This document shows positions 5,327 through 17,248 of a stretch of 64,000 nt of DNA, piece after piece (position 1 is the first letter of the stretch; each line of letters opens with the position of its first letter). The notes below the pieces were generated by a model. That model ran no database searches. It saw nothing but the letters and a program-made list of their open reading frames with translations, and had not been told where the DNA came from. The translations under genes were made by a program, and so were the position numbers. The stretch lies in assembly GCF_003058225.1 (NCBI RefSeq), contig NZ_QBUG01000002.1, positions 372,001 through 436,000 of the forward strand. The letters run 5' to 3'. The DNA comes from Promicromonospora sp. AC04 (GTDB lineage Bacteria; Actinomycetota; Actinomycetes; Actinomycetales; Cellulomonadaceae).

Positions 5327-5980
5327 ATGATCAATCTCTGCTTTCACGGGATCGGAACGCCACCTGCCGGCGTCCCGGCCGAGGAGGCTGCGTACTGGAT
5401 CGGGGGCGACACGTTCCGTCGGGTCCTGGACCGGGTCGCCGACCGTCCGGACGTGCGGCTGACCTTCGACGACGGCAACGACTCCGACGTCACGGTGGCC
5501 CTGCCGGAGCTGGTCGACCGGGGGCGGGTCGCCGAGTTCTTCGTCATCGCGGGCCGCCTCGGGCGCCCCGGCTCGCTGGCGGCCGCCGACGTACGGCGGC
5601 TGCGCCTGGCCGGGATGGGCGTCGGGTCGCACGGCCTGCACCACCGGGTCTGGCGCAGGCTGAGCCAGGCGGACCAGCACGAGGAGCTCGTGGTCGCCCG
5701 CAGCTGGCTGGAGGAGGTCCTGGGCGAGCCGGTGAGCACGGCGGCGTGCCCGCTCGGCCGGTACGACCGCGCGACCCTGGCCGCGCTGCGCCGGCTGCGC
5801 TACACCCGCGTCTACACCAGCGACCGGGCACTGGCCCGGCCGGGCACCTGGCGACAGGCCCGGTTCAGCCTCCGTTCCGGCGACACGGCCGACGACGTCG
5901 GCGGCTGGCTCCAGCACGGCGACCGTTATCCCGCGCGGCTCGCGGACTCGGCGCGGACGTTCGTCAAGGGGCTGCGCTGA
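5327..5980 (+). CDS. Polysaccharide deacetylase family protein
   Basis: ATG at 5327 gives 217 residues beginning MINLCFHGIGTPP. The NodB-homology fold is visible: VRLTFDDGNDSD (metal- and base-supplying Asp pair, about residues 44-53) and GSHGLHHRVW (the HxxxH-type metal-binding motif, about residues 97-107). Later ACPLGRYD replaces the usual motif 3. It is short compared with secreted deacetylases and has no clear signal peptide, so it may act on a lipid-linked intermediate in the cytoplasm. It lies 50 bases after the Wzy-like gene and its stop overlaps the next start by one base. Similar deacetylases occur in exosortase-linked exopolysaccharide clusters. Confidence 0.82.
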   Translation: MINLCFHGIGTPPAGVPAEEAAYWIGGDTFRRVLDRVADRPDVRLTFDDGNDSDVTVALPELVDRGRVAEFFVIAGRLGRPGSLAAADVRRLRLAGMGVGSHGLHHRVWRRLSQADQHEELVVARSWLEEVLGEPVSTAACPLGRYDRATLAALRRLRYTRVYTSDRALARPGTWRQARFSLRSGDTADDVGGWLQHGDRYPARLADSARTFVKGLR

Positions 5981-6921
5981 TGGCGGGTCCGAGTGCCGTC
6001 GATGGTCCCGGCGGCCTCGGCACCGACCCCGAGGTCGCCGCCGTCGTCGTCACGTACAACAGCGCACGCCACGTCGGCGACCTGCTGGACAGCCTGCCCG
6101 CGGCGTTCGGGGACGTCACGTACCGGGCCGTCGTGGTCGACAACGGCTCGACGGACGAGACGGTGGCGCTGCTGCGCGCCAGGGACGACTGCACAGTCGT
6201 CGAGAGCGTGAACGACGGGTACGGCGCCGGCATGAACCGCGCAGTGCGGCATGCACCCCGGGCCGGGACGATCCTGGTGCTCAACCCCGACGCCCTGCTC
6301 GACCCGGAGGCAGTGCCCCGGATGCTGCGCGTGCTGCGCCGGCCGGGCGTCGGCATCGTCGCGCCCCGTACGCGGGAGGCCGACGGTCGGTTGTCGCCGA
6401 CGCTGCGCCGCACGCCGACAGTCGCTCGCGTCGGCGGGCTGAGCTTCACCCGCATCCCGTGGTTCGCCGAACGGATCGACGACCCGCGCGCCTACACCGC
6501 CGAGCGCGCCGTCGACTGGGCGGTCGGGTCGATCTGGCTGCTCTCCCGGGAGTGCTTCGACACGCTGGGCGGGTTCGACGAGTCGTACTTCCTGTACTCG
6601 GAGGAGACGGACTTCGCGCTCCGGGCCCGGGACGCGGGCTGGGCCACCGTGTACACGCCGCTGGCCGGCGGTATGCACATCGGCGGCGGGTCGGGCACCA
6701 GCCACGAGACCCACACGATGCAGATGCTGAACCGGGTCCGGCTGGTCCGACGGCGCAGCGGGACCCCGGCCGCCTGGGTGTACTTCGCGGGAACCCTGCT
6801 CATCGAGCTGCGCCGCGCCGTCCTGGGCCACCGCGCGTCGTGGCCCACGCTGCGCGCGCTGGTCCGCCCCGCCCTCCGCCCGGCGGTGCTCGGCGCGAGC
6901 GACGCGGTGCTGCCGCGATGA
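5980..6921 (+). CDS. Glycosyltransferase family 2 (rhamnosyltransferase-like)
   Basis: ATG at 5980 shares its first base with the preceding stop (TGATG), giving 313 residues. GT2 features are clear: VAAVVVTYNSARHVGDLLDSL at the start, VVDNGSTDETVALL, LNPDALLDPEAV as the DXD-like site, and GGFDESYFLYSEETDFALRAR, the acceptor-side motif common in WbbL-type rhamnosyltransferases. It is cytoplasmic and probably adds one sugar to the repeat unit. It overlaps the next glycosyltransferase by four bases (ATGA), so the three genes from 5327 are one translationally coupled block. Confidence 0.9.
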   Translation: MAGPSAVDGPGGLGTDPEVAAVVVTYNSARHVGDLLDSLPAAFGDVTYRAVVVDNGSTDETVALLRARDDCTVVESVNDGYGAGMNRAVRHAPRAGTILVLNPDALLDPEAVPRMLRVLRRPGVGIVAPRTREADGRLSPTLRRTPTVARVGGLSFTRIPWFAERIDDPRAYTAERAVDWAVGSIWLLSRECFDTLGGFDESYFLYSEETDFALRARDAGWATVYTPLAGGMHIGGGSGTSHETHTMQMLNRVRLVRRRSGTPAAWVYFAGTLLIELRRAVLGHRASWPTLRALVRPALRPAVLGASDAVLPR

Positions 6922-7990: not shown

Positions 7991-8096
7991 AAACGAGAGC
8001 ACAGGCAGGTTTCGGTTCGGCGCGTCAGAGCGAGCGCAGGTTTCGGTTCGACATGCGAACCGCAGTGGCGGCCGATCACAGCACGCTTGCCCGGCC

Positions 8097-8236
8097 GAGA
8101 CCCGAGACCCGATACCGGAGACCCCAGACCCCAGACCCCAGACCCAAGACCCAAGACCCAAGACCCGGGACTCGAGACCCGAGACCCGAGACCCGAGACC
8201 CGAGACCCGAGACCCGAGACCCGAGACCCGAGACCC
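8097..8236. repeat. Heptanucleotide tandem array (GAGACCC)n
   Basis: Twenty consecutive 7-base units run without a break. Two GAGACCC lead, then a degenerate unit (GATACCG), one GAGACCC, three CAGACCC, three AAGACCC, one GGGACTC, then nine identical GAGACCC units. The block order (C-, A-, then G-started units) shows stepwise local expansion. It ends 10 bases before the stop codon of the convergent gene. Confidence 0.95.
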
Positions 8237-8246
8237 GACCAAACCG

Positions 8247-9182
8247 CTAGGACCCGCCCCCGCGACACGGATCGAGCGCCCCCACCGACTTCGTCCGACC
8301 GGAGCCCGTCACGGTCACCACATGGGACCGTCGGACGGCGACGTCGGGACAGCTGACCTCGACCGCGGCGTAGCCCCAGCTGCCCTTGACCACCTGGAGG
8401 TTGCGCACCGTCCCGTGGGTGCCCGCCCGGAACGGGTAGCCGCCACCGCGGACGAGCAGGCCATCGATCGACAGCGACGTGTTGCCCTGGCCGTCCGGGT
8501 AGAAGAACGGGGCGTTCCCGGGGCAGTTGGCGCGTTCGCGCAGCGTGATGGTCGTCATGCGCACCACGAGCCGGCCGCCGTTGTACCCCTGGATGCCGTC
8601 GCCGTGCCAGTCCCGGCACGCATGGGGCGGTTCGATCCGGATGAAGCTGTCGGCGACGGTCACGCCGCCGCAGTGCTTGGACCCGACCCGGATCCCCTCG
8701 GGGACACCGTCGATCTTGACGTCGCGGACGGTGAACCCCCCGTTGCCGATGACGGGCAGGTCGGTCTCACCGGAGCGGCCGGTGCTCACGAACGTCGAGC
8801 GCTCGATCAGCAGCCCGGACCCGCACTTGCCGTTCACGTCGTTGATCACCACGGCGTTGACAGCCTGCACCCGCCGCAGCGTCACGTTCCGCGCGGCGAC
8901 GTAGACGACGCCGTTCCGGATCCGCAGGTCCTTGACCACCGTCCCCGCCTTGCGGATCCAGAGGTCCCCGGTGTGGGTCTTCTTCGGCGACCAGCCGGGC
9001 GGGAGGCCCGCGCTCCTCACGGTGGGGAACGTGGTAGGCGGCCCGGTCGACGTCGTCCCCGCAGACGCGGGCGGTGCCGCCTGTGCCACCGGTGCCGGCG
9101 CAGGCTGCGAGGCCGCGACCGTCCCGGCGACGACGAGCACACCGATCCCGGCGAGCACAGCACGACGAGGGAATTTCCACAT
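8247..9182 (-). CDS. Secreted parallel beta-helix repeat protein, function unknown
   Basis: ATG at 9182 has GGAGG eight bases upstream. The 311-residue product starts MWKFPRRAVLAGIGVLVVAGTV, a signal peptide whose RRAVLAG stretch could be a Tat signal, followed by an Ala/Pro/Thr-rich linker to about residue 55. The rest is made of short beta-helix turns (TVVKDLRIRNGVVYVAARNVTLRRV, LLIERSTFV, GVTVADSFIRIE) as in pectate-lyase-like right-handed helices. I see no catalytic set of a named lyase family. It is inside the exopolysaccharide cluster, so a role in binding or trimming the polymer outside the cell is possible. Four cysteines in the helix part could form disulfides. Confidence 0.75.
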   Translation of the reverse strand: MWKFPRRAVLAGIGVLVVAGTVAASQPAPAPVAQAAPPASAGTTSTGPPTTFPTVRSAGLPPGWSPKKTHTGDLWIRKAGTVVKDLRIRNGVVYVAARNVTLRRVQAVNAVVINDVNGKCGSGLLIERSTFVSTGRSGETDLPVIGNGGFTVRDVKIDGVPEGIRVGSKHCGGVTVADSFIRIEPPHACRDWHGDGIQGYNGGRLVVRMTTITLRERANCPGNAPFFYPDGQGNTSLSIDGLLVRGGGYPFRAGTHGTVRNLQVVKGSWGYAAVEVSCPDVAVRRSHVVTVTGSGRTKSVGALDPCRGGGS

Positions 9183-9332: not shown

Positions 9333-10205
9333 GTGCCGGTCGCCCAGAATGTTCTCACCCTCCCGATCACCACGGACGATCTTTCCCGTGTGGGTGAATT
9401 TCTCAGCGTCCACCTCGACAACAGCCTCACGCCCGGACAATGGGCACATTCGCTGCGCCCCACGTGGACCACGAGCCACCCCGACCACGGGTTCCTGCTC
9501 GAGTCCGACGGCCTGGTCGTCGGCGTGTACGCCGCGTTCTACTCCGAGACCCGGACGGCGGACGACCGGCAGCGCGCGGTGTGCAACCTCGCGGCGTGGT
9601 GCGTCCTGGACGAGTTCCGCCACCACTCGCTGCGGCTGGTGCGCGCGATGCTCGCCCAGCGCGACCGCGAGCTGACCGATCTCTCCCCGAGCGGCACCGT
9701 GGTGCCCCTGAACGAGCGGCTCGGCTTCCGTCACGTCGACACGGCGGGCGCGCTGGTGGTCAACCTCCCCCTGCCCACACGGCGGCGCGTGCGCCTCCTG
9801 ACCGGGCGCGCAGACATCGAGGCCGTGCTCTCGGGCGCCGACCTGGCCGCGTACCGCGACCACGCAGACTCCCCTGCCGCGCGGCACGTGGTGGCCGTGG
9901 TCGACGGGCGACCGTGCTGGGTGGTGTTCCGCGCGGTCCGGCGTAAGGGGCTCCGCCTGTTCGCGTCCGTCCTGCACGTGAGCGACCGCGACCTGTTCCG
10001 CGCCACCGCACCCGCGGTGTACCGGCACATCCTGCTCGCACACGGGCTGCCGTTCACCCTGGTGCAGACCCGCGTCTCCGGCCCCGGTCCATGGCACTCA
10101 GTGCCACTGTCCGCGCAGCGGCCGGCCATGTACCTGAGCCGCACGGGGGAGCCGCCGGAATCGGTCACGTACCTGTACAGCGAGCTGACCCAGGTGCCGT
10201 GGTGA
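9333..10205 (+). CDS. GNAT-fold acyltransferase of the exopolysaccharide cluster
   Basis: I choose GTG at 9333 (MPVAQNVLTLPITTDDL) because GATAAT is seven bases in front; an in-frame ATG at 9255 would add 26 unsupported residues. The 290-residue protein carries an N-terminal GNAT-like core with NLAAWCVLDEFRHHSLRLVRAML (the acyl-CoA pyrophosphate loop region) and VPLNERLGFRHVDT (the C-terminal GNAT strand-helix). About 130 further residues follow with a possible second half-domain (ARHVVAVVDGRPCWVVF). The substrate is unknown. It lies directly before an AMP-ligase, PLP decarboxylase and ACP trio, so it is a candidate for transferring the acyl group that trio makes. That link is inference. Confidence 0.7.
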   Translation: MPVAQNVLTLPITTDDLSRVGEFLSVHLDNSLTPGQWAHSLRPTWTTSHPDHGFLLESDGLVVGVYAAFYSETRTADDRQRAVCNLAAWCVLDEFRHHSLRLVRAMLAQRDRELTDLSPSGTVVPLNERLGFRHVDTAGALVVNLPLPTRRRVRLLTGRADIEAVLSGADLAAYRDHADSPAARHVVAVVDGRPCWVVFRAVRRKGLRLFASVLHVSDRDLFRATAPAVYRHILLAHGLPFTLVQTRVSGPGPWHSVPLSAQRPAMYLSRTGEPPESVTYLYSELTQVPW

Positions 10206-10456
10206 AATGCGCTCCGCAAGGTGAAACCAGTGCCCTGAGGCACAATTCACGACACATATCACCCTCTTGGCAGGGCTATATTCAAACGCTTCTCCATAGA
10301 TTCACCTCTGGCGTTTCACCCCGAGCTATTCGCATCTCGCCAACAATGCCGGCCAGCGATCCATTTTCACCCTTTTCGCGGTTCACCCGCTTTTCGGCCT
10401 GATTCACCCGGCGCCCGCCTGACGGAAATGGCAGCGCTCGCTCTACCGTGATTCAT
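10206..10456 (+). promoter_or_regulatory. Regulatory region with clustered TTCACC motifs and promoter of the ligase operon
   Basis: Five TTCACC(C) copies begin at 10301, 10315, 10366, 10382 and 10403, and GGTGAAACC lies at 10220-10228. GTTCACCCGCT at 10381 matches ten of eleven positions of the direct-repeat unit published for Streptomyces PhoP boxes. TCACCC is also compatible with a BldD half-site. TACCGT at 10444-10449 ends seven bases before GTG 10457 and is the probable -10 box. No gene is seen in the region. Confidence 0.6.
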
Positions 10457-12070
10457 GTGACCGCCATCCATCAGCTCCTGGAGCAGCAGGCGCGGATCCG
10501 CCCCGGTGCCCCGGCACTGTCCGCCCGAGACGCGACCCTTACCTACGCACAGCTGTGGCACGCCGTTCAGGAGGCCGGGTCCCATCTCGCCGGGCTCGGC
10601 GTGGCTCGCCACGACCGCGTGGCGGTCTATCTGGAGAAGCGGTTCGAGACGGTGGCGGCACTCTGGGGCACCTCGGTGGCCGGCGCCGTCTTCGTCCCCG
10701 TCAACCCGCTGCTCAAGGGCAAGCAGGTCGCCCACGTCGTCCGCGACTCGGGCGCCCGGGTGCTGGTCACCTCGGCCGGTCGGCTGGCCGCCGTGCGCGA
10801 CCATCTCGGGGACACCGGGCTCACCACTGTGCTGCTCGTGGACCAGCCCGACGGCGCGGCCCCGGCGGGCTCGGGCGCGGAGCCGGACGGCCTCACCATC
10901 CGCTCCTGGGCCACAGCGCCCGACGGCGACGCGCCCCCCGTCGACGCCCCACCCGCCGAGGCACCGCCGTCGGGCCCCGACACGGATATCGCGGCGATCC
11001 TGTACACCTCCGGCAGCACCGGCGCGCCCAAGGGTGTAGTCCTGTCGCACCGCAACCTGGTCGTTGGCGCCACCAGCGTCTCCGGCTACCTGGGCAACAC
11101 GGCCGACGACGTCCTGCTGGCCGTGCTGCCCCTGAGCTTCGACGCGGGCCTGAGCCAGCTGACCACCGCGTTCGCCGTCGGCGCCCACGTGGTGCTGCTG
11201 GACTACCTGCTCCCCCGCGACGTCCCCGCCGTCTGCGAGAAGTACGGCGTCACCGGCATCACCGGTGTACCGCCCCTGTGGACGCAGCTGGCGACGGTGG
11301 ACTGGCCGCAGCGCGCCCGGCAGGCGCTGCGGTACTTCGCGAACACGGGCGGGCGCATGCCCCGGTCGCTCCTGGTCGAGCTGCGCGAGCTGTTCCCCGC
11401 CTCGGTGAAGCCGTACCTGATGTACGGCCTCACGGAGGCGTTCCGCTCCACCTACCTCGACCCCGCCCAGGTGGATCTCCGGCCCGACTCGATCGGCCGG
11501 GCGATCCCGAACGCGGAGGTCCTGGTGCTGCGCTCGGACGGCACCCGGTGCGGCCCCGGGGAGCCGGGCGAGCTGGTGCACCGCGGCAGCCTCGTCGCGC
11601 TCGGCTACTGGAACGACCCGGAGCGCACGGCGGCGCGGTTCCGCCCCGTGCCCGGGTACGACGAGCCCTGGCGGGCAGCCCCCGAGCCGGCCGTGTGGTC
11701 CGGCGACACTGTGGTGCAGGACGCCGAGGGATACCTCTACTTCGTCGGCCGCGCGGACGAGATGATCAAGACCTCCGGGTACCGGGTCAGCCCCACCGAG
11801 GTGGAGGAGGCGGCCCTCGGCACCGGTCTGGTCCGCGAGGTCGTCGCCCTCGGCGTGCCCGACGCCCGCCTGGGCCAGCGGATCGTGCTCGTCGCCGCGG
11901 CACCGGAGCCCGTCGACACGGACCGGCTGGTCAAGGAGATGCGGCAGTCGCTCCCCACGTTCATGCTGCCGGCGGAGGTCCGGCTGGTCGACACGCTGCC
12001 CCGCACCCCGAACGGCAAGCTCGACCGTCCCACGGTCCGCGCCCGTGTCACCGCGCAGGTGACCAAGTGA
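10457..12070 (+). CDS. AMP-forming acyl/aminoacyl ligase, exosortase A-associated family type
   Basis: GTG at 10457 is taken as start because TACCGT ends seven bases before it; GTG 10448 would add three residues. The 537-residue enzyme has the ANL-superfamily set: YTSGSTGAPKGVV (about residues 182-194), YGLTEA, the RGSLVALGYW segment, and the C-terminal catalytic lysine in PNGKLDR (K521). Such enzymes adenylate a carboxylic acid and load it on CoA or a carrier protein. The sequence resembles the ligase family named from exosortase A loci (TIGR03098). It overlaps the decarboxylase gene by four bases, and an ACP gene follows, so the likely acceptor is that ACP. The acid substrate is unknown. 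Confidence 0.88.
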   Translation: MTAIHQLLEQQARIRPGAPALSARDATLTYAQLWHAVQEAGSHLAGLGVARHDRVAVYLEKRFETVAALWGTSVAGAVFVPVNPLLKGKQVAHVVRDSGARVLVTSAGRLAAVRDHLGDTGLTTVLLVDQPDGAAPAGSGAEPDGLTIRSWATAPDGDAPPVDAPPAEAPPSGPDTDIAAILYTSGSTGAPKGVVLSHRNLVVGATSVSGYLGNTADDVLLAVLPLSFDAGLSQLTTAFAVGAHVVLLDYLLPRDVPAVCEKYGVTGITGVPPLWTQLATVDWPQRARQALRYFANTGGRMPRSLLVELRELFPASVKPYLMYGLTEAFRSTYLDPAQVDLRPDSIGRAIPNAEVLVLRSDGTRCGPGEPGELVHRGSLVALGYWNDPERTAARFRPVPGYDEPWRAAPEPAVWSGDTVVQDAEGYLYFVGRADEMIKTSGYRVSPTEVEEAALGTGLVREVVALGVPDARLGQRIVLVAAAPEPVDTDRLVKEMRQSLPTFMLPAEVRLVDTLPRTPNGKLDRPTVRARVTAQVTK

Positions 12071-13329
12071 CCGCGCAGCCGCTGGTCGCACCGGTCGAGG
12101 CTGTCGCCCCGCACCCGGCCGTTGCGGCCGTGCCGGTGGCGGGCGACGAGGTGGTAGTGGGCGGCGTGCCGCTGACACGCCTGGCGGCCCGCGTGGGGTC
12201 CACGCCGTTCTTCGCCTACGACCGGCAGCGCATCAGCGACCGGGTCGGCGAGGTCCGGGCCGCGTTCGGCGACGCGGTGCGTCTCGGGTACGCCGTCAAG
12301 GCCAACCCGATGCCCGCCGTCGTGCAGCACCTGGCCGGGCTCGTCGACGCGCTCGACGTCGCCTCCGCCCGGGAGATGCACACCGCCCTGGACACCGGGA
12401 CGACACCGGACCGGATCAGCTTCGCGGGTCCCGGCAAGACGCCGGAGGAGATCCGCTCGGCGGTCGCGGCAGGCGTGCTGATCGAGCTCGAGTCGCAGAC
12501 CGAGGCACACCGGGTCGTCGCCGCCGGGGAAGGCCTCGGCGTCGTCCCGCGGGTGGCGGTCCGCGTCAACCCGGACTTCGCCGTGCGCGGCTCGGGAATG
12601 CGCATGTCGGGCGGCCCGCAGCAGTTCGGCGTCGACGCCGAACAGGTCCCCGACCTGCTCCGTTACCTGACGGCGACCGGCGTGGACATGACCGGCTTCC
12701 ACGTCTTCGCCGGGTCGCAGAACCTCGACGCCGAGCGGATCGCCGACGCCCAGCGCGCCACGGCCGACCTCGTGGTCACGCTCGCCGATCACGTACCCGG
12801 CCCGGTGCGATACGTGAACCTGGGCGGCGGCCTCGGCATCCCGTACTTCCCGAAGGACCGGCCCGTCGACCTGGGCCGCGTGGGCGAGAGCCTCGCGGCG
12901 GTGGTCGCCGAGCGAATAGCCCCGGCGCTGCCCGACGCCGACGTCCACATCGAGCTGGGCCGGTACCTCGTCGGCGAGGCCGGCTACTACGTGACCCGCG
13001 TGATCGACCGCAAGGTCTCGCGCGGGCGCACCTACCTGGTGGTCGACGGCGGCATGCACCACCAGCTCGCCGCGTCGGGAAACCTCGGGCAGGTGATCCG
13101 GCGCAACTACCCGGTGCTCGTCGGCGACCACATGGCGGTGCGCGACACCGAGCAGGCGACAGTCGTCGGCTGCCTGTGCACACCCCTCGACCTGCTGGCC
13201 GACGACGTCCCGCTGCCCCGCGCAGAGCCCGGCGACCTCGTCGTGGTGCTCCAGGCCGGGGCCTACGGCCTGACCGCGAGCCCTACCGCGTTCCTCGGCC
13301 ACCCGGCACCCGCCGAAGTGCTGGTCTGA
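12067..13329 (+). CDS. PLP-dependent decarboxylase, exosortase A-associated family type
   Basis: GTG at 12067 overlaps the ligase stop (GTGA), giving 420 residues. It belongs to the alanine racemase-fold group of Orn/DAP/Arg decarboxylases: YAVKANPMP carries the PLP lysine (K78), followed by FHVFAGSQ, the phosphate-binding NLGGGLGIPY, ELGRYLVGEAGYYV and the late CTPLD and GAYGLTASPTAFLGH motifs. It fits the family named for exosortase A clusters (TIGR03099). In butirosin synthesis a related enzyme (BtrK) decarboxylates an aminoacyl group already bound to an ACP. Linkage here to a ligase and an ACP supports a similar reaction, though free meso-DAP or ornithine decarboxylation is not excluded. 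Confidence 0.88.
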   Translation: MTAQPLVAPVEAVAPHPAVAAVPVAGDEVVVGGVPLTRLAARVGSTPFFAYDRQRISDRVGEVRAAFGDAVRLGYAVKANPMPAVVQHLAGLVDALDVASAREMHTALDTGTTPDRISFAGPGKTPEEIRSAVAAGVLIELESQTEAHRVVAAGEGLGVVPRVAVRVNPDFAVRGSGMRMSGGPQQFGVDAEQVPDLLRYLTATGVDMTGFHVFAGSQNLDAERIADAQRATADLVVTLADHVPGPVRYVNLGGGLGIPYFPKDRPVDLGRVGESLAAVVAERIAPALPDADVHIELGRYLVGEAGYYVTRVIDRKVSRGRTYLVVDGGMHHQLAASGNLGQVIRRNYPVLVGDHMAVRDTEQATVVGCLCTPLDLLADDVPLPRAEPGDLVVVLQAGAYGLTASPTAFLGHPAPAEVLV

Positions 13330-13397
13330 CCACCTGACATCCGCCTGACCTCCACCCGGCAGCATCCGAGAACCGACCATCCGACAGGGGAGAAACG

Positions 13398-13700
13398 ATG
13401 AGCAGCGACGTGACACAGGGCCCAGCCGGCCCGTCCAGTGGGACTGCAGGCGACGTGACGCTCGCCGACGTGCTCGAGGTGCTCGGCAAGGTCCTCGGGA
13501 TCGAGGACCGCGTGGGCGCGTTCGACGCCGGCACGCCCCTCTTCGGCGACCTGCCGGAGCTGGACTCGCTGGCCGTCCTGGAGCTCGTGACGACGCTCGA
13601 GGACCGGTTCGCGATAACGGTGGACGACGACGAGCTCACCGGGGGGCTGCTGGAGACCGCCGGCACCCTGCACGCGTTCGTCCGCGACCGGGCCCGGTGA
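13398..13700 (+). CDS. Acyl carrier protein
   Basis: The 100-residue acidic protein has a flexible N-terminus, then a carrier fold with LADVLEVLGKVLGI, the phosphopantetheine attachment site ELDSLAVLELVTTLED (Ser57) and the last helix GTLHAFVRDRAR. GGGGAGA precedes the ATG at SD distance. It follows the decarboxylase by 68 bases and precedes an acyltransferase by 10, so it is most likely dedicated to this cluster rather than to fatty-acid synthesis. It should carry the group activated by the upstream ligase. Confidence 0.9.
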   Translation: MSSDVTQGPAGPSSGTAGDVTLADVLEVLGKVLGIEDRVGAFDAGTPLFGDLPELDSLAVLELVTTLEDRFAITVDDDELTGGLLETAGTLHAFVRDRAR

Positions 13701-13710
13701 CGGGCGCGCC

Positions 13711-14361
13711 ATGAGTACGGACAGCAGGGTGGCAACGGACAGCACGGCACCGGCTCGGATCCTCGGCTCGGCCGACGTCGACGAGCGCGCCACGATCGGC
13801 GTCGGCACCACCATCTGGCACCTCGCCCAGGTGCGGGAGGACGCCGTCGTCGGCGCCGGCTGCACGGTGGGGCGCGGCGCGTACGTCGGGCCGGGCGTGC
13901 GGGTCGGCGACGGCTGCAAGCTGCAGAACTACGCCCTGGTCTACGAGCCGGCCGTGCTGGAGGACGGCGTGTTCGTGGGCCCGGCCGTCGTGCTGACCAA
14001 CGACCTGTATCCGCGCGCGATCACCCCGGACGGCGCGGTCAAGACCACCGACGACTGGCAGGCCGTAGGCGTCACCATCCGGACCGGAGCCGCGATCGGC
14101 GCCCGGGCCGTGTGCGTGGCGCCGGTGACCATCGGCCGGTGGGCCACCGTGGCGGCCGGGGCGGTCGTGACCACCGACGTGCCGGACTTCGCGCTCGTCG
14201 CCGGCGTGCCCGCGCGCCGCATCCGCTGGGTGGGCCGCGCCGGCGTACCGCTGGAACGCACCGGCCCGGAGGGCTGGCGGTGTCCCGCGACCGGGGACGA
14301 GTTCACCGAGGCGGACGGGGTCCTGCGCGAAGCGGACAAGAGCGTCTCTTTTCGCGAATGA
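13711..14361 (+). CDS. Left-handed beta-helix (hexapeptide) N-acyltransferase, WbpD/WlbB-like
   Basis: The 216-residue protein has continuous hexapeptide turns (ATIGVGTTIWHLAQVREDAVVGAGCTVG onward) and the WHLAQVRE and LTNDLYPRA segments of acyltransferases that acetylate 3-amino sugars on UDP-hexoses. The C-terminus AGVPARRIRWVG is standard for the fold. It then has an unusual tail, GWRCPATGDEFTEADGVL, in which only one Cys is present, so it is not a zinc knuckle. The start ATG lies 10 bases after the ACP stop. It may use acetyl-CoA, or the group held by the neighbouring ACP; the latter is inference. Confidence 0.85.
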   Translation: MSTDSRVATDSTAPARILGSADVDERATIGVGTTIWHLAQVREDAVVGAGCTVGRGAYVGPGVRVGDGCKLQNYALVYEPAVLEDGVFVGPAVVLTNDLYPRAITPDGAVKTTDDWQAVGVTIRTGAAIGARAVCVAPVTIGRWATVAAGAVVTTDVPDFALVAGVPARRIRWVGRAGVPLERTGPEGWRCPATGDEFTEADGVLREADKSVSFRE

Positions 14362-14676: not shown

Positions 14677-16257
14677 GTGGCGAGCCAGACGGTAGACGGC
14701 GGTTTCGAAATTCGCCCTCAGACGACCGAGCAATGGGTGAAGAATCACGCGTCGCGCGGTTTTCACGATCCCCGCGCCACACGCGCCCACCCGCAATGGC
14801 AGATGCAGTATCGCCTGCGGCTGCGGTTGACGGACGCGGCGGTCGTGGTCGGCTCCGCCGTCGTCGCCTACGTCCTGGACGCGACCCTGCTGTTCGGTGC
14901 GCCCGGGCACCCGGGGCCGCTCCGGTCGATCGCCGTGCCTGCCATGGTGGCGGCGGTCTGGATCGCGGCGCTGGCCCTGCGCAGCTCGTACGACCTGCGC
15001 GTCGTGGGCCGGGACCACACGGAGTACCTGCGGATCTTCGGCGCCACGTGGACGTCGGTGAGCGTGCTCGTGCTCCTGGCGTGGCTCACCACGTTCGTCG
15101 AGGCCCGGGACGTGCTCGCGCAGGCCGTCGCGCTGCCGCTCGGGCTCGCCGGGCTGATCGGGTCCCGCTACACCTGGCGCCAGTGGGTGGCGCGCACCCG
15201 GCGGCGGGGCAGGGGCTGCATGACGCCCGTCCTGGTGGTCGGGCACCGCGAACAGGCCGAGCGCGTGATCAGGAGGCTCAACGGCTCACCCCAGCAGGGG
15301 TACGTGGTGGTGGGCGCCTGCCTGCCGTCCGACGAGACCTCGGCGGATGGGACGCCGTCCGGCACGCCGCGGCCCTGGGACGGGCTGCCCGGCGACGAGG
15401 TCGGCGGCGTGCCCGTGCTGGGCGACCTGTCCCGGGTCGGCGAGGCGGCGGCGCTCGTCCGCGCGAGCGCCGTAGCGGTGAGCGCGTCCGACAGCATCAC
15501 GACCGACGTCGTGCGTCAGCTCGGCTGGCAGCTCGAACGGGTCGGCGTCGACCTCATGCTCACCGCGGAGCTGGCCGACGTCGCGCCCGCCCGCGTCAGC
15601 GTCTCCCCCGCGTCGGGCATCTCGCTGCTGCACGTGGCGGCGCCCGAGTTCAAGGGGCCCAAGTTCCGCGTGAAACAAACCATGGACTGGCTGCTCGCCG
15701 CCGTGCTGACGCTGCTCGCGTCGCCGGCGCTGGTGGGCGTGGGGCTCGCCGTGGCACTGACCAGCAAGGGCGGGCTGTTCTACCTGTCGGAGCGCGTGGG
15801 GCGCAACGGCAAGATCTTCCGGATGATCAAGTTCCGCACCATGCGGGTCGGCGCCGACCGGGAGGTGACGACGCTCGCCGCCGGGAACGACGCGGCGGGC
15901 CCGCTGTTCAAGATGCGCACCGACCCGCGCATCACCGGCGTGGGCCGGATCCTGCGCCGGTACTCCCTCGACGAGCTGCCGCAGCTCTTCAACGTGCTGA
16001 GCGGGCAGATGAGCCTCGTGGGCCCGCGGCCGGCGCTCCCGCACGAGGTGGCGAAGTACGAGGAGCGCATGCGGCGCAGGCTCCTGGTCAAGCCGGGCAT
16101 GACGGGGATGTGGCAGGTCTCCGGCCGGTCCGACCTGCCCTGGGAGGAGGCGGTGCGGCTCGACGTCTACTACGCCGAGAACTGGACGCCGCTGCAGGAC
16201 CTGGCCATCCTTGGCCAGACCGCCCGCGCGGTCGTCTCGGGCCGCGGCGCCTACTGA
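14677..16257 (+). CDS. Exopolysaccharide biosynthesis polyprenyl-phosphate sugar transferase
   Basis: GTG 14677 (MASQTVDGGFEIRPQ) is preferred over TTG 14644 because AAGAAAGGA stands in front; this gives 526 residues. There are about four N-terminal membrane segments, a nucleotide-binding-like middle (PVLVVGHREQAERVIRRL), a further membrane helix (WLLAAVLTLLASPALVG), and the bacterial sugar transferase domain. That domain shows FRMIKFRTM, YSLDELPQLFNVLSGQMSLVGPRP (catalytic Asp-Glu) and KPGMTGMWQVSGRSD. It should start repeat-unit assembly by moving a sugar-1-phosphate from UDP-sugar to undecaprenyl phosphate. It is last in the cluster and is followed four bases after the stop by a 21-bp palindrome. 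Confidence 0.93.
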   Translation: MASQTVDGGFEIRPQTTEQWVKNHASRGFHDPRATRAHPQWQMQYRLRLRLTDAAVVVGSAVVAYVLDATLLFGAPGHPGPLRSIAVPAMVAAVWIAALALRSSYDLRVVGRDHTEYLRIFGATWTSVSVLVLLAWLTTFVEARDVLAQAVALPLGLAGLIGSRYTWRQWVARTRRRGRGCMTPVLVVGHREQAERVIRRLNGSPQQGYVVVGACLPSDETSADGTPSGTPRPWDGLPGDEVGGVPVLGDLSRVGEAAALVRASAVAVSASDSITTDVVRQLGWQLERVGVDLMLTAELADVAPARVSVSPASGISLLHVAAPEFKGPKFRVKQTMDWLLAAVLTLLASPALVGVGLAVALTSKGGLFYLSERVGRNGKIFRMIKFRTMRVGADREVTTLAAGNDAAGPLFKMRTDPRITGVGRILRRYSLDELPQLFNVLSGQMSLVGPRPALPHEVAKYEERMRRRLLVKPGMTGMWQVSGRSDLPWEEAVRLDVYYAENWTPLQDLAILGQTARAVVSGRGAY

Positions 16258-16260
16258 TTC

Positions 16261-16321
16261 GTTGTGGGCGCGACCGTTGCGCCTAAACCGGGCACGAAGT
16301 CGCAACGGTCGCGCCCACAAC
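16261..16321. repeat. Palindromic repeat, copy 1 (21-bp perfect arms)
   Basis: Arms 16261-16281 (begins GTTGTGGGCGCGACC) and 16301-16321 are exact reverse complements around a 19-base loop. It lies four bases after the sugar transferase stop and 12 bases before the stop of the convergent methyltransferase, so it can end transcription from both sides. A second copy with an identical left arm stands at 17188-17248. Confidence 0.85.
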
Positions 16322-17187: not shown

Positions 17188-17248
17188 GTTGTGGGCGCGA
17201 CCGTTGCGCCTATGACGGACACGTTGTCGCAACGGTCACGCCCACAAC
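17188..17248. repeat. Palindromic repeat, copy 2
   Basis: The left arm 17188-17208 is identical to that of copy 1. The right arm 17228-17248 differs at one base, giving C/A against the rightward RNA but a G-U pair in the leftward RNA. The 19-base loop is partly conserved too (CCTA, CGG, CACG at matching places). It lies upstream of the methyltransferase and before the stop of the GNAT gene. Confidence 0.85.

What the first reader, a model, noticed from the sequence alone, without database searches (positions are those of the whole stretch)
9333..14361. Ligase-PLP decarboxylase-ACP trio inside an exopolysaccharide cluster without exosortase
An AMP-forming ligase and a PLP decarboxylase resembling the exosortase A-associated families overlap by four bases and are followed by an ACP (Ser57 site) and a hexapeptide acyltransferase. 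No exosortase or PEP-CTERM protein is visible. The set parallels BtrJ-BtrK-BtrI in butirosin synthesis, where an amino acid is loaded on an ACP and decarboxylated there. A possible reading is that this module makes a decarboxylated aminoacyl-S-ACP and decorates the polymer with an amine-bearing side chain. Sequence shows the families and order; the reaction is inferred.
Basis: partly seen in the sequence, partly recalled or inferred. Interest (0 to 1): 0.85.

Follow-up and report, generated by a model that had tools for sequence, protein, structure and literature searches.

The report
Amino-acid decoration kit for exopolysaccharide
A soil actinobacterium carries, inside its slime-polysaccharide gene cluster, a compact enzyme set that probably loads an acidic amino acid on a small carrier protein, strips off CO2 and attaches the amine-bearing remainder to the polymer, a trick known so far from antibiotic pathways.

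Summary
Window 10448-13700 encodes an AMP-forming ligase (TIGR03098, 714 bits, cut-off 592), a BtrK-like PLP decarboxylase (TIGR03099, 576 bits, cut-off 478) whose start overlaps the ligase stop, and an ACP with Ser57, in an exopolysaccharide cluster. The genome has no exosortase match.

The ligase keeps VinN's Asp230 and Arg331 (D232, R333; invariant in 43 relatives), so a side-chain-activated acidic amino acid is likelier than a fatty acid. BtrJ is ATP-grasp, so VinN-VinO-VinL is the better parallel. The hexapeptide transferase is not core: it follows the trio in 7 of 80 loci, all Promicromonospora.

The conserved partner went unmentioned: 9333-10205, a predicted tandem-GNAT acyltransferase, found in 61 of 80 loci. 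Among 248 genomes its strong matches fall in exactly the four with the ligase. A CE4 deacetylase (5327-5980) accompanies it in 53 of the 61.

Proposed: Asp/Glu-S-ACP, then beta-alanyl/GABA-S-ACP, then GNAT transfer to an amine that the deacetylase exposes: Nod-factor logic with a macrolactam-type donor. Association and pocket residues are shown; substrate, reactions and acceptor are inferred. New variant of a known kind.

The parts
9333..10205 (+). Predicted tandem-GNAT acyltransferase, the conserved partner of the trio; proposed to transfer the aminoacyl group from the ACP
   Evidence: No Pfam or NCBIfam hit at E <= 0.01; AlphaFold2 model pLDDT 94.0, pTM 0.89; best Foldseek hits are tandem GNATs such as VipF and Eis, with NMT lower, probability 1.00 but TM-scores of only about 0.36-0.56 in the rows listed; homolog in 61 of 80 loci; in 248 genomes the four strong matches are the four ligase genomes
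10448..12070 (+). ANL ligase (TIGR03098), proposed to load an acidic amino acid on the ACP through its side-chain carboxylate
   Evidence: 714.1 bits over cut-off; VinN D230/S299/R331 = D232/T300/R333, these columns invariant in 43 of 43
12067..13329 (+). PLP decarboxylase (TIGR03099), BtrK-like
   Evidence: 575.8 bits over cut-off; profile A6 scores BtrK 381 bits, the next entries (annotated DAP decarboxylases) 258 and 244; CTPxD motif shared with BtrK and 6knh, CETxD in the DAP decarboxylase 2p3e
13398..13700 (+). Stand-alone acyl carrier protein, phosphopantetheine site Ser57
   Evidence: PF00550; Ser in 68 of 68 aligned; within 300 nt downstream of the decarboxylase in 69 of 80 loci
13711..14361 (+). 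Hexapeptide-repeat sugar acyltransferase; neighbour of the trio in Promicromonospora only
   Evidence: PF00132; NeuD/PglB model TIGR03570 76.5 bits, below its 160.8 cut-off; directly downstream in 7 of 80 loci, all Promicromonospora
14677..16257 (+). Polyprenyl-phosphate sugar-1-phosphate transferase that starts the repeat unit
   Evidence: TIGR03025 365.7 bits over 295.55; PF02397
5327..5980 (+). CE4 polysaccharide deacetylase, no N-terminal signal peptide by inspection; proposed to expose the acceptor amine
   Evidence: PF01522 65 bits; D48, D49, H102, H106 invariant in 32 of 32 aligned; in 53 of 61 loci with the GNAT gene, 0 of 19 without; match at E <= 1e-25 in 4 of 248 genomes: 3 strong, all with ligase and GNAT, and one weaker without
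5980..6921 (+). GT2 glycosyltransferase; its homolog lies directly downstream of the ACP in 6 of 9 alphaproteobacterial loci and a GT2 is fused to the ACP in one
   Evidence: PF00535; gene orders; fusion in L111
4008..5276 (+). Wzy-type polymerase / O-antigen ligase family
   Evidence: PF04932 58 bits
3124..3945 (+). Wzz-like chain-length determinant
   Evidence: PF02706 24.6 bits, just under its 25.5 cut-off

Best explanation
An aminoacyl-ACP decoration module of an exopolysaccharide. (1) The ligase activates the side-chain carboxylate of an acidic amino acid, most likely L-aspartate and otherwise L-glutamate, as the acyl-AMP and loads it on Ser57-phosphopantetheine of the ACP. (2) The PLP decarboxylase removes the alpha-carboxylate on the carrier, giving beta-alanyl-S-ACP (or 4-aminobutyryl-S-ACP). 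(3) A cytosolic CE4 deacetylase exposes an amine on an N-acetylhexosamine of the lipid-linked repeat unit or its precursor. (4) The tandem-GNAT protein transfers the aminoacyl group from the ACP to that amine. The repeat unit is then flipped and polymerised, so the polymer carries primary amines. Shown: families, order, co-occurrence, pocket residues and the predicted GNAT fold. Inferred: the substrate, the decarboxylation, the transfer, the acceptor and the order of steps 3 and 4.
For: Curated models passed. Alignment to VinN: D230=D232, S299=T300, R331=R333, without a gap across the short loop that carries R331; these are the residues named for the amino and carboxyl groups in the bolagladin paper (passage); invariant in 43 of 43 ligases. 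Decarboxylase nearest to BtrK. Stop/start overlap in 73 of 74 adjacent pairs. GNAT model of high confidence, tandem GNAT hits. GNAT and ligase coincide in the same 4 of 248 genomes. All 61 GNAT loci hold at least 2 of 12 polysaccharide gene types. Deacetylase in 53 of 61 GNAT loci in varying order and strand, and strongly in 3 of 248 genomes, all three with the ligase. ACP fused to a GT2 glycosyltransferase in an Ensifer locus. Nine actinomycete loci without any of the 12 polysaccharide types hold the decarboxylase, the ligase beside it in 6; 8 of the 9 also hold a ketosynthase homolog (Pfam ketosynthase in 6 of 6 proteins tested), which fits an aminoacyl building block. In L131 and L133, where the usual ligase is missing, another AMP-binding protein lies next to the set.
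Against: No biochemistry and no polymer structure. VinN F231, which mutagenesis showed to matter for binding 3-MeAsp and Asp (passage), is A233 here and K330 is F332, so the pocket is not VinN's and the acid is not fixed. The CTPxD motif is not proof of ACP-bound substrate: 6knh, annotated as a probable DAP decarboxylase, has it too. The GNAT could use acetyl-CoA, or acylate the amine of the aminoacyl-ACP; no acyl-ACP-using GNAT stood out among the hits and TM-scores are modest. In L042 (genome G143) GNAT, ligase, decarboxylase and ACP stand together without any polysaccharide gene type in the 20 kb read. In 19 of 80 loci no GNAT was found in the stretch held: 9 PKS-type and 10 polysaccharide-type loci, four of these on stretches of 7-14 kb. 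In 8 of 61 GNAT loci no deacetylase was found, and ligase genome G616 has no deacetylase match at E <= 1e-25. L117 lacks the usual ligase and no substitute was identified. The loci share ancestry, so counts are not independent.
Confidence: 0.5

Rival explanations
1. Same aminoacyl-ACP, other role for the GNAT: it caps the free amine of beta-alanyl/GABA-S-ACP (for example with acetyl from CoA), and the capped acyl group is then passed to the sugar by another enzyme, such as a glycosyltransferase-linked step.
For: In vicenistatin the beta-aminoacyl-ACP is aminoacylated before transfer (passage), and N-acylation is proposed in bolagladin (passage). The best Foldseek hits of the GNAT include acetyl-CoA enzymes. 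An ACP-GT2 fusion exists.
Against: A capped group gives no reason for the deacetylase that accompanies the GNAT in 53 of 61 loci. In vicenistatin the cap is proposed to protect an amine during chain elongation, which is not needed here.
Confidence: 0.2
2. The aminoacyl-ACP is made for a small molecule or for another envelope polymer (lipid, peptidoglycan) and sits in polysaccharide clusters only by linkage.
For: Related enzymes occur in PKS-type loci and, in one actinobacterial family (f19), beside another tandem GNAT in 8 of 8 loci read and a FemX-like transferase in 4 of 8; VanW and beta-lactamase-like neighbours were seen in L047. In L042 the four genes stand without polysaccharide genes.
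Against: All 61 named loci with the window-type GNAT hold polysaccharide gene types: Wzy, Wzz and Wzx in many actinobacterial ones, glycosyltransferases in all 9 alphaproteobacterial ones and the deacetylase in 8 of these 9.
Confidence: 0.2
3. Ordinary fatty-acid activation plus a free DAP, ornithine or lysine decarboxylase, next to each other by chance.
For: Generic family names; NCBIfam calls the ligase an acyl-CoA ligase. A protein annotated as DAP decarboxylase, 6knh, shares the CTPxD motif.
Against: VinN-type residues invariant, decarboxylase much nearer to BtrK, ACP beside it in 69 of 80 loci, stop/start coupling in 73 of 74.
Confidence: 0.05

Closest known systems
VinN-VinL-VinO (vicenistatin) and related beta-amino acid starter systems; proposed BolO-BolC-BolN (bolagladin)
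   Same: ANL adenylating enzyme, stand-alone ACP and PLP decarboxylase acting on the ACP-bound acid (passages); VinN D230 and R331 kept
   Different: F231 is Ala and K330 is Phe here; polysaccharide context instead of PKS/NRPS; VinM and VinK counterparts were not looked for; a tandem GNAT and a CE4 deacetylase instead
BtrJ-BtrI-BtrK (butirosin)
   Same: BtrK is the nearest decarboxylase of known structure; it decarboxylates glutamyl-S-BtrI (passage), an iso-glutamyl thioester (passage)
   Different: BtrJ is ATP-grasp (passage), the ligase here is ANL; the other butirosin genes were not searched for
Exosortase A (XrtA/PEP-CTERM) associated ligase TIGR03098 and decarboxylase TIGR03099
   Same: Both models passed over cut-off; of 16 loci read from exosortase-positive genomes, 12 hold an ACP of 67 bits or more against a profile of these ACPs
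   Different: No exosortase in the genome; window-type decarboxylases lie in a supported group of 83 rows without the exosortase rows (SH-aLRT 99, quick tree); the window-type GNAT is in 0 of those 16 loci
Nod factor NodB/NodA
   Same: CE4 deacetylase plus an N-acyltransferase that takes an acyl group from an ACP (passage)
   Different: Donor is an amino acid on its own ACP; the target is proposed to be an exopolysaccharide; homology of the GNAT to NodA was not tested
Dlt system (D-alanylation of teichoic acid; recalled)
   Same: ANL ligase plus dedicated carrier protein that put an amine-bearing acyl group on a polymer
   Different: Amino acid proposed to be decarboxylated; transfer proposed in the cytosol by a GNAT; DltB and DltD were not searched for

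Membership tests
TIGR03098/TIGR03099 (exosortase A system-associated ligase and decarboxylase) | Scores over the curated cut-offs | tested here: met
   714.1 vs 592.35 and 575.8 vs 478.45 bits
TIGR03098/TIGR03099 (exosortase A system-associated ligase and decarboxylase) | Exosortase present in the genome | tested here: not met
   PF09721: no match at E <= 10. Relatives: of 49 genomes searched, 16 have some match at E <= 1 and 2 pass the cut-off, with partial matches of 25-31 bits. Contrast: 30 of 43 ligase-positive Pseudomonadota genomes
VinN-type beta-amino acid adenylating enzymes | Asp for the amino group (D230) and Arg for the carboxylate (R331) | tested here: met
   D232 and R333, 43 of 43
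VinN-type beta-amino acid adenylating enzymes | F231, S299, K330 | tested here: not met
   A233, T300 (conservative), F332
BtrK-type aminoacyl-ACP decarboxylases | Closest sequence relation among solved structures | tested here: met
   381 bits against 258 and 244 for the next entries. The CTPxD motif is shared but also present in 6knh
BtrK-type aminoacyl-ACP decarboxylases | Activity on aminoacyl-S-ACP and not on the free acid | not testable with these tools
   Needs enzyme assay
Butirosin BtrI-BtrJ-BtrK set | ATP-grasp ligase | tested here: not met
   PF00501 AMP-binding, 270 bits; BtrJ is ATP-grasp (passage)
GNAT superfamily, tandem type | Two GNAT domains | tested here: met
   By prediction only: model pLDDT 94; tandem GNATs lead the Foldseek list, probability 1.00, TM-scores about 0.36-0.56. 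No Pfam GNAT model hits the window protein; its homolog in L042 gives a sub-threshold Acetyltransf_9 match
NodA/NodB-like deacetylation and acylation | CE4 catalytic and metal motifs in the deacetylase | tested here: met
   PF01522; D48, D49, H102, H106 invariant in 32 of 32 aligned; roles of these residues recalled
NodA/NodB-like deacetylation and acylation | Homology of the acyltransferase to NodA | not tested
   No NodA sequence compared

The most novel reading that the evidence does not exclude
A widespread, exosortase-free route of polysaccharide aminoacylation that joins two known logics: antibiotic-type decarboxylation of an amino acid on its own ACP, and Nod-factor-type deacetylation followed by ACP-dependent N-acylation by a tandem GNAT. 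It would make exopolysaccharides with beta-alanyl or GABA amides, hence primary amines, in actinobacteria and rhizobia, by a route other than the Dlt route and tRNA-dependent transferases.
Probability: 0.4. Interest if true: 0.82.

Novelty: new variant of a known kind. Interest (0 to 1): 0.68.

Why it matters
Two hypothetical families named after the exosortase system would get a testable chemistry, and the name would prove misleading: here they form an exosortase-free branch with its own transferase. If right, it predicts amine-bearing exopolysaccharides in many soil bacteria, which would change charge, cation binding, adhesion and possibly plant interaction, and it supplies a compact set for putting amines on glycans. 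It would also suggest what the related enzymes do in exosortase clusters.

Tried and rejected
Hexapeptide protein as the transferase of the module: rejected as core, because it follows the trio in only 7 of 80 loci, all Promicromonospora; a role in this genus is not excluded. BtrJ parallel for the ligase: rejected (ATP-grasp, passage). Fatty acid/CoA ligase and free DAP/ornithine decarboxylase: disfavoured. Exosortase-linked function: rejected for this genome.

Substrate choice Asp or Glu: could not be settled. A short fragment search of the ligase pocket gave no hit at E <= 0.001; a longer fragment gave the VinN alignment. The profile search printed only gramicidin synthase alignments. The product of the PKS-type loci was not identified. 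The gene caller in my scripts is home-made; in 16 of 80 loci its calls showed no decarboxylase, so presence was counted by tblastn instead. A first count of the stop/start overlap, 74 of 75, included a non-adjacent pair and did not check for stops; the stricter recount, 73 of 74, replaces it. One search prints '60 nt' for the ligase distance; the script used 80.

Literature: I saw listings only, and of long result lists only the top: 1 of 1; 0; 15 of 59; 15 of 73; 10 of 177; 8 of 18; 8 of 49. None described this module in a polysaccharide cluster. The library holds open papers only. In the exosortase paper PMC1569441 none of six terms asked occurs.


Full report
WHAT IS THERE. The window is bases 372001-436000 of contig C2 of a 6.85 Mb actinobacterial assembly, 99.67% complete; its nearest named relatives are Promicromonospora (decarboxylase 85-90% identical by tblastn). 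A polysaccharide cluster runs from about 9.5 kb before the window to base 16257. Called and named with Pfam: glycosyltransferases, a Gfo/Idh oxidoreductase, an NAD epimerase, two DegT aminotransferases, a NeuD-like hexapeptide protein, a Wzx-like flippase, a Wzz-like protein, a Wzy-type polymerase, a CE4 deacetylase, and at the end the genes of the finding followed by the priming sugar transferase. The ligase and the decarboxylase pass TIGR03098 and TIGR03099 well over their cut-offs. They overlap by GTGA; this overlap, open in frame, is kept in 73 of 74 adjacent pairs tested. The ACP serine is kept in 68 of 68 aligned ACPs. The genome has no PF09721 match at E <= 10. The set is sporadic: 2 of 396 genomes of the phylum pass the TIGR03099 cut-off.

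WHAT THE ENZYMES LOOK LIKE. The decarboxylase is nearest to BtrK among solved structures (E 4e-73; the next entry 3.5e-44). With a 43-member profile BtrK scores 381 bits, the next entries 258 and 244. It has BtrK's CTPxD motif where the DAP decarboxylase 2p3e has CETxD, but 6knh, annotated as a probable DAP decarboxylase, has CTPxD as well, so the motif alone does not show an ACP-bound substrate. BtrK decarboxylates glutamyl-S-BtrI (passage of PMC7857480). The ligase fragment 170-361 finds VinN first (3wv4, 3wvn; these entries are VinN by PMC11253843, passage). Read on the printed alignment, VinN D230, F231, S299, K330, R331 correspond to D232, A233, T300, F332, R333 (the chain numbering is offset by 16, chosen because all five named residues then fit), without a gap across the loop that carries K330 and R331. 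D230 holds the amino group and S299/R331 are proposed for the carboxyl group (passages of PMC7756342, and PMC11253843). All five columns are invariant in 43 of 43 ligases. VinN activates the side-chain carboxylate, which leaves the alpha-carboxylate for the decarboxylase. Asp or Glu is therefore the expected substrate. Against a simple VinN reading, F231, which mutagenesis showed to matter, is Ala here, and K330 is Phe; the exact acid is open.

The gene at 9333-10205 has no Pfam or NCBIfam hit. A 52-sequence alignment (A4) gave a model of pLDDT 94.0 and pTM 0.89, whose best matches are tandem GNAT acyltransferases such as VipF and Eis, with N-myristoyltransferase lower in the list (probability 1.00, TM-scores about 0.36-0.56 in the 50 rows listed, so the fold class is clear and the closest relative is not). 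In 80 named loci fetched with the decarboxylase as query, tblastn found: ligase in 74, directly upstream within 80 bases in 68; ACP in 73, within 300 bases downstream in 69; the GNAT gene in 61, in 37 of them on the same strand within 2.6 kb upstream of the decarboxylase. The hexapeptide protein follows the trio in 7, all Promicromonospora. All 61 GNAT loci hold at least 2 of 12 polysaccharide gene types of the window's cluster. A test that does not depend on picking loci: of 248 genomes drawn from the order, 4 have the ligase at E <= 1e-140, and the GNAT profile gives 4 strong matches (299-409 bits) in the same four genomes, plus two at 19 bits. The chance of hitting the same four is 6.5e-9 if genomes were independent, which relatives are not. 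One exception to the polysaccharide setting: in L042 (genome G143) GNAT, ligase, decarboxylase and ACP stand in this order with none of the 12 types in the 20 kb read.

THE DEACETYLASE. Window 5327-5980 is a CE4 protein (PF01522) with D48, D49, H102 and H106 invariant in 32 of 32 aligned (the window's and 31 of the 53 found). It is found within the stretch held in 53 of the 61 loci with the GNAT gene and in 0 of the 19 without; 9 of those 19 are PKS-type, so 0 of 10 is the fairer figure, and four of the ten stretches are only 7-14 kb long. Its distance and strand relative to the GNAT vary and 24 of 53 lie within 3 kb, so this is not one frozen operon. A 32-member profile has, at E <= 1e-25, strong matches (309-318 bits) in 3 of 248 genomes, all with ligase and GNAT; the fourth ligase genome, G616, has none, and G459 has a partial match of 96 bits without the ligase.

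RELATIVES IN OTHER SETTINGS. Exosortase: of 49 genomes reached through 50 of the 80 loci (one not held), 16 have some match at E <= 1, 3 at E <= 0.001 and 2 pass the PF09721 cut-off, with partial matches of 25-31 bits. In 398 Pseudomonadota genomes 43 have the ligase at E <= 1e-140 and 30 of these 43 have an exosortase match over the cut-off. Of 20 loci read around those ligases, 16 come from exosortase-positive genomes and 4 from negative ones; the window-type GNAT is in 0 of 16 and in 1 of 4 (L179). L179 also shows GT2- and deacetylase-like genes after the ACP (by eye). One actinobacterial family, f19, has ACP, ligase and decarboxylase beside a different tandem GNAT in 8 of 8 loci read and a FemX-like protein in 4 of 8 (in L044 a 43-bit fragment besides). 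Nine loci of Streptomyces, Actinacidiphila, Pseudonocardia, Herbidospora and Saccharothrix hold the decarboxylase, 6 of them with the ligase detected beside it, and none of the 12 polysaccharide types; 8 of the 9 hold a ketosynthase homolog (ketosynthase domains by Pfam in 6 of 6 proteins tested from six of them, and a condensation domain in L095); L130 showed none. In a quick tree of 106 decarboxylases the window, the 80 named loci, L042 and L179 form a group of 83 (SH-aLRT 99), in which the PKS-type nine are one group (96); f19 is separate. The 13 rows that I labelled as exosortase rows fall outside the 83 and need not be one group; L189 and L190, also from exosortase-positive genomes, were labelled apart and fall elsewhere; the program warns of long branches. 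In L131 and L133 the usual ligase is missing and another AMP-binding protein lies next to GNAT, decarboxylase and ACP; L117 lacks it too, without an identified substitute. In the 9 alphaproteobacterial loci a GT2 gene follows the ACP directly in 6, and in L111 (Ensifer) the ACP is fused to a GT2 glycosyltransferase.

HOW IT PROBABLY WORKS. Load Asp or Glu by its side chain on the ACP, decarboxylate on the carrier, and hand the beta-alanyl or 4-aminobutyryl group to a sugar amine through the GNAT, after a deacetylase has exposed that amine. [quoted passage not shown] passage of PMC5080398). Families, order, co-occurrence and pocket residues are shown; each reaction is inferred. The main rival keeps the aminoacyl-ACP and lets the GNAT cap its amine.

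KNOWN OR NEW. The two enzyme families are named but are of the hypothetical-equivalog type. The chemistry is known from antibiotics. The exosortase-free polysaccharide module with its GNAT and deacetylase did not appear in the listings, of which only the top rows were seen, in a library of open papers. I rate it a new variant of a known kind.

LIMITS. Loci were fetched with a query made from the window and one relative, so they lean to this branch. Counts share ancestry. Papers were seen as passages or listings only. No reaction was tested.

Noticed in passing
window 16262-16320 and 17189-17247: Two copies of an inverted repeat with arm CGCAACGGTCGCGCCCACAA; 4 arm matches in the window against 0.02 expected, 11 exact arms in the genome, 0 for the reversed control. 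A REP-like or terminator-like element.
   Followed up: partly
window 8095-8238: Array of about 20 copies of the 7-mer CCGAGAC between the glycosyltransferase and the secreted-protein gene.
   Followed up: no
window 8247-9182, minus strand: Probable secreted protein of about 311 aa without a Pfam or NCBIfam hit at E <= 0.01; homologs in 23 of 80 loci, 22 of them with the GNAT gene. Possibly a polymer-acting enzyme.
   Followed up: no
L111:11277-12491: ACP fused to a GT2 glycosyltransferase in Ensifer.
   Followed up: partly
L131:7632-9065 and L133:11471-12898: A divergent AMP-binding protein lies next to GNAT, decarboxylase and ACP where the usual ligase is missing.
   Followed up: partly
L043-L050 (family f19): ACP-ligase-decarboxylase with another tandem GNAT and, in half of the loci, a FemX-like transferase; suggests a link to peptidoglycan or another envelope polymer.
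   Followed up: partly
L095, L103, L114, L115, L125, L127, L129, L132: Close relatives of the decarboxylase, in five of these eight with the ligase detected beside it, in loci with ketosynthase homologs; product unknown.
   Followed up: partly
L042 (genome G143): GNAT-ligase-decarboxylase-ACP as an isolated set without polysaccharide gene types in 20 kb, beside genes with Spondin_N and FUSC_2 domains.
   Followed up: partly
L109: Contig labelled Stenotrophomonas maltophilia whose decarboxylase falls among Microbacteriaceae rows; likely contamination or recent transfer.
   Followed up: no
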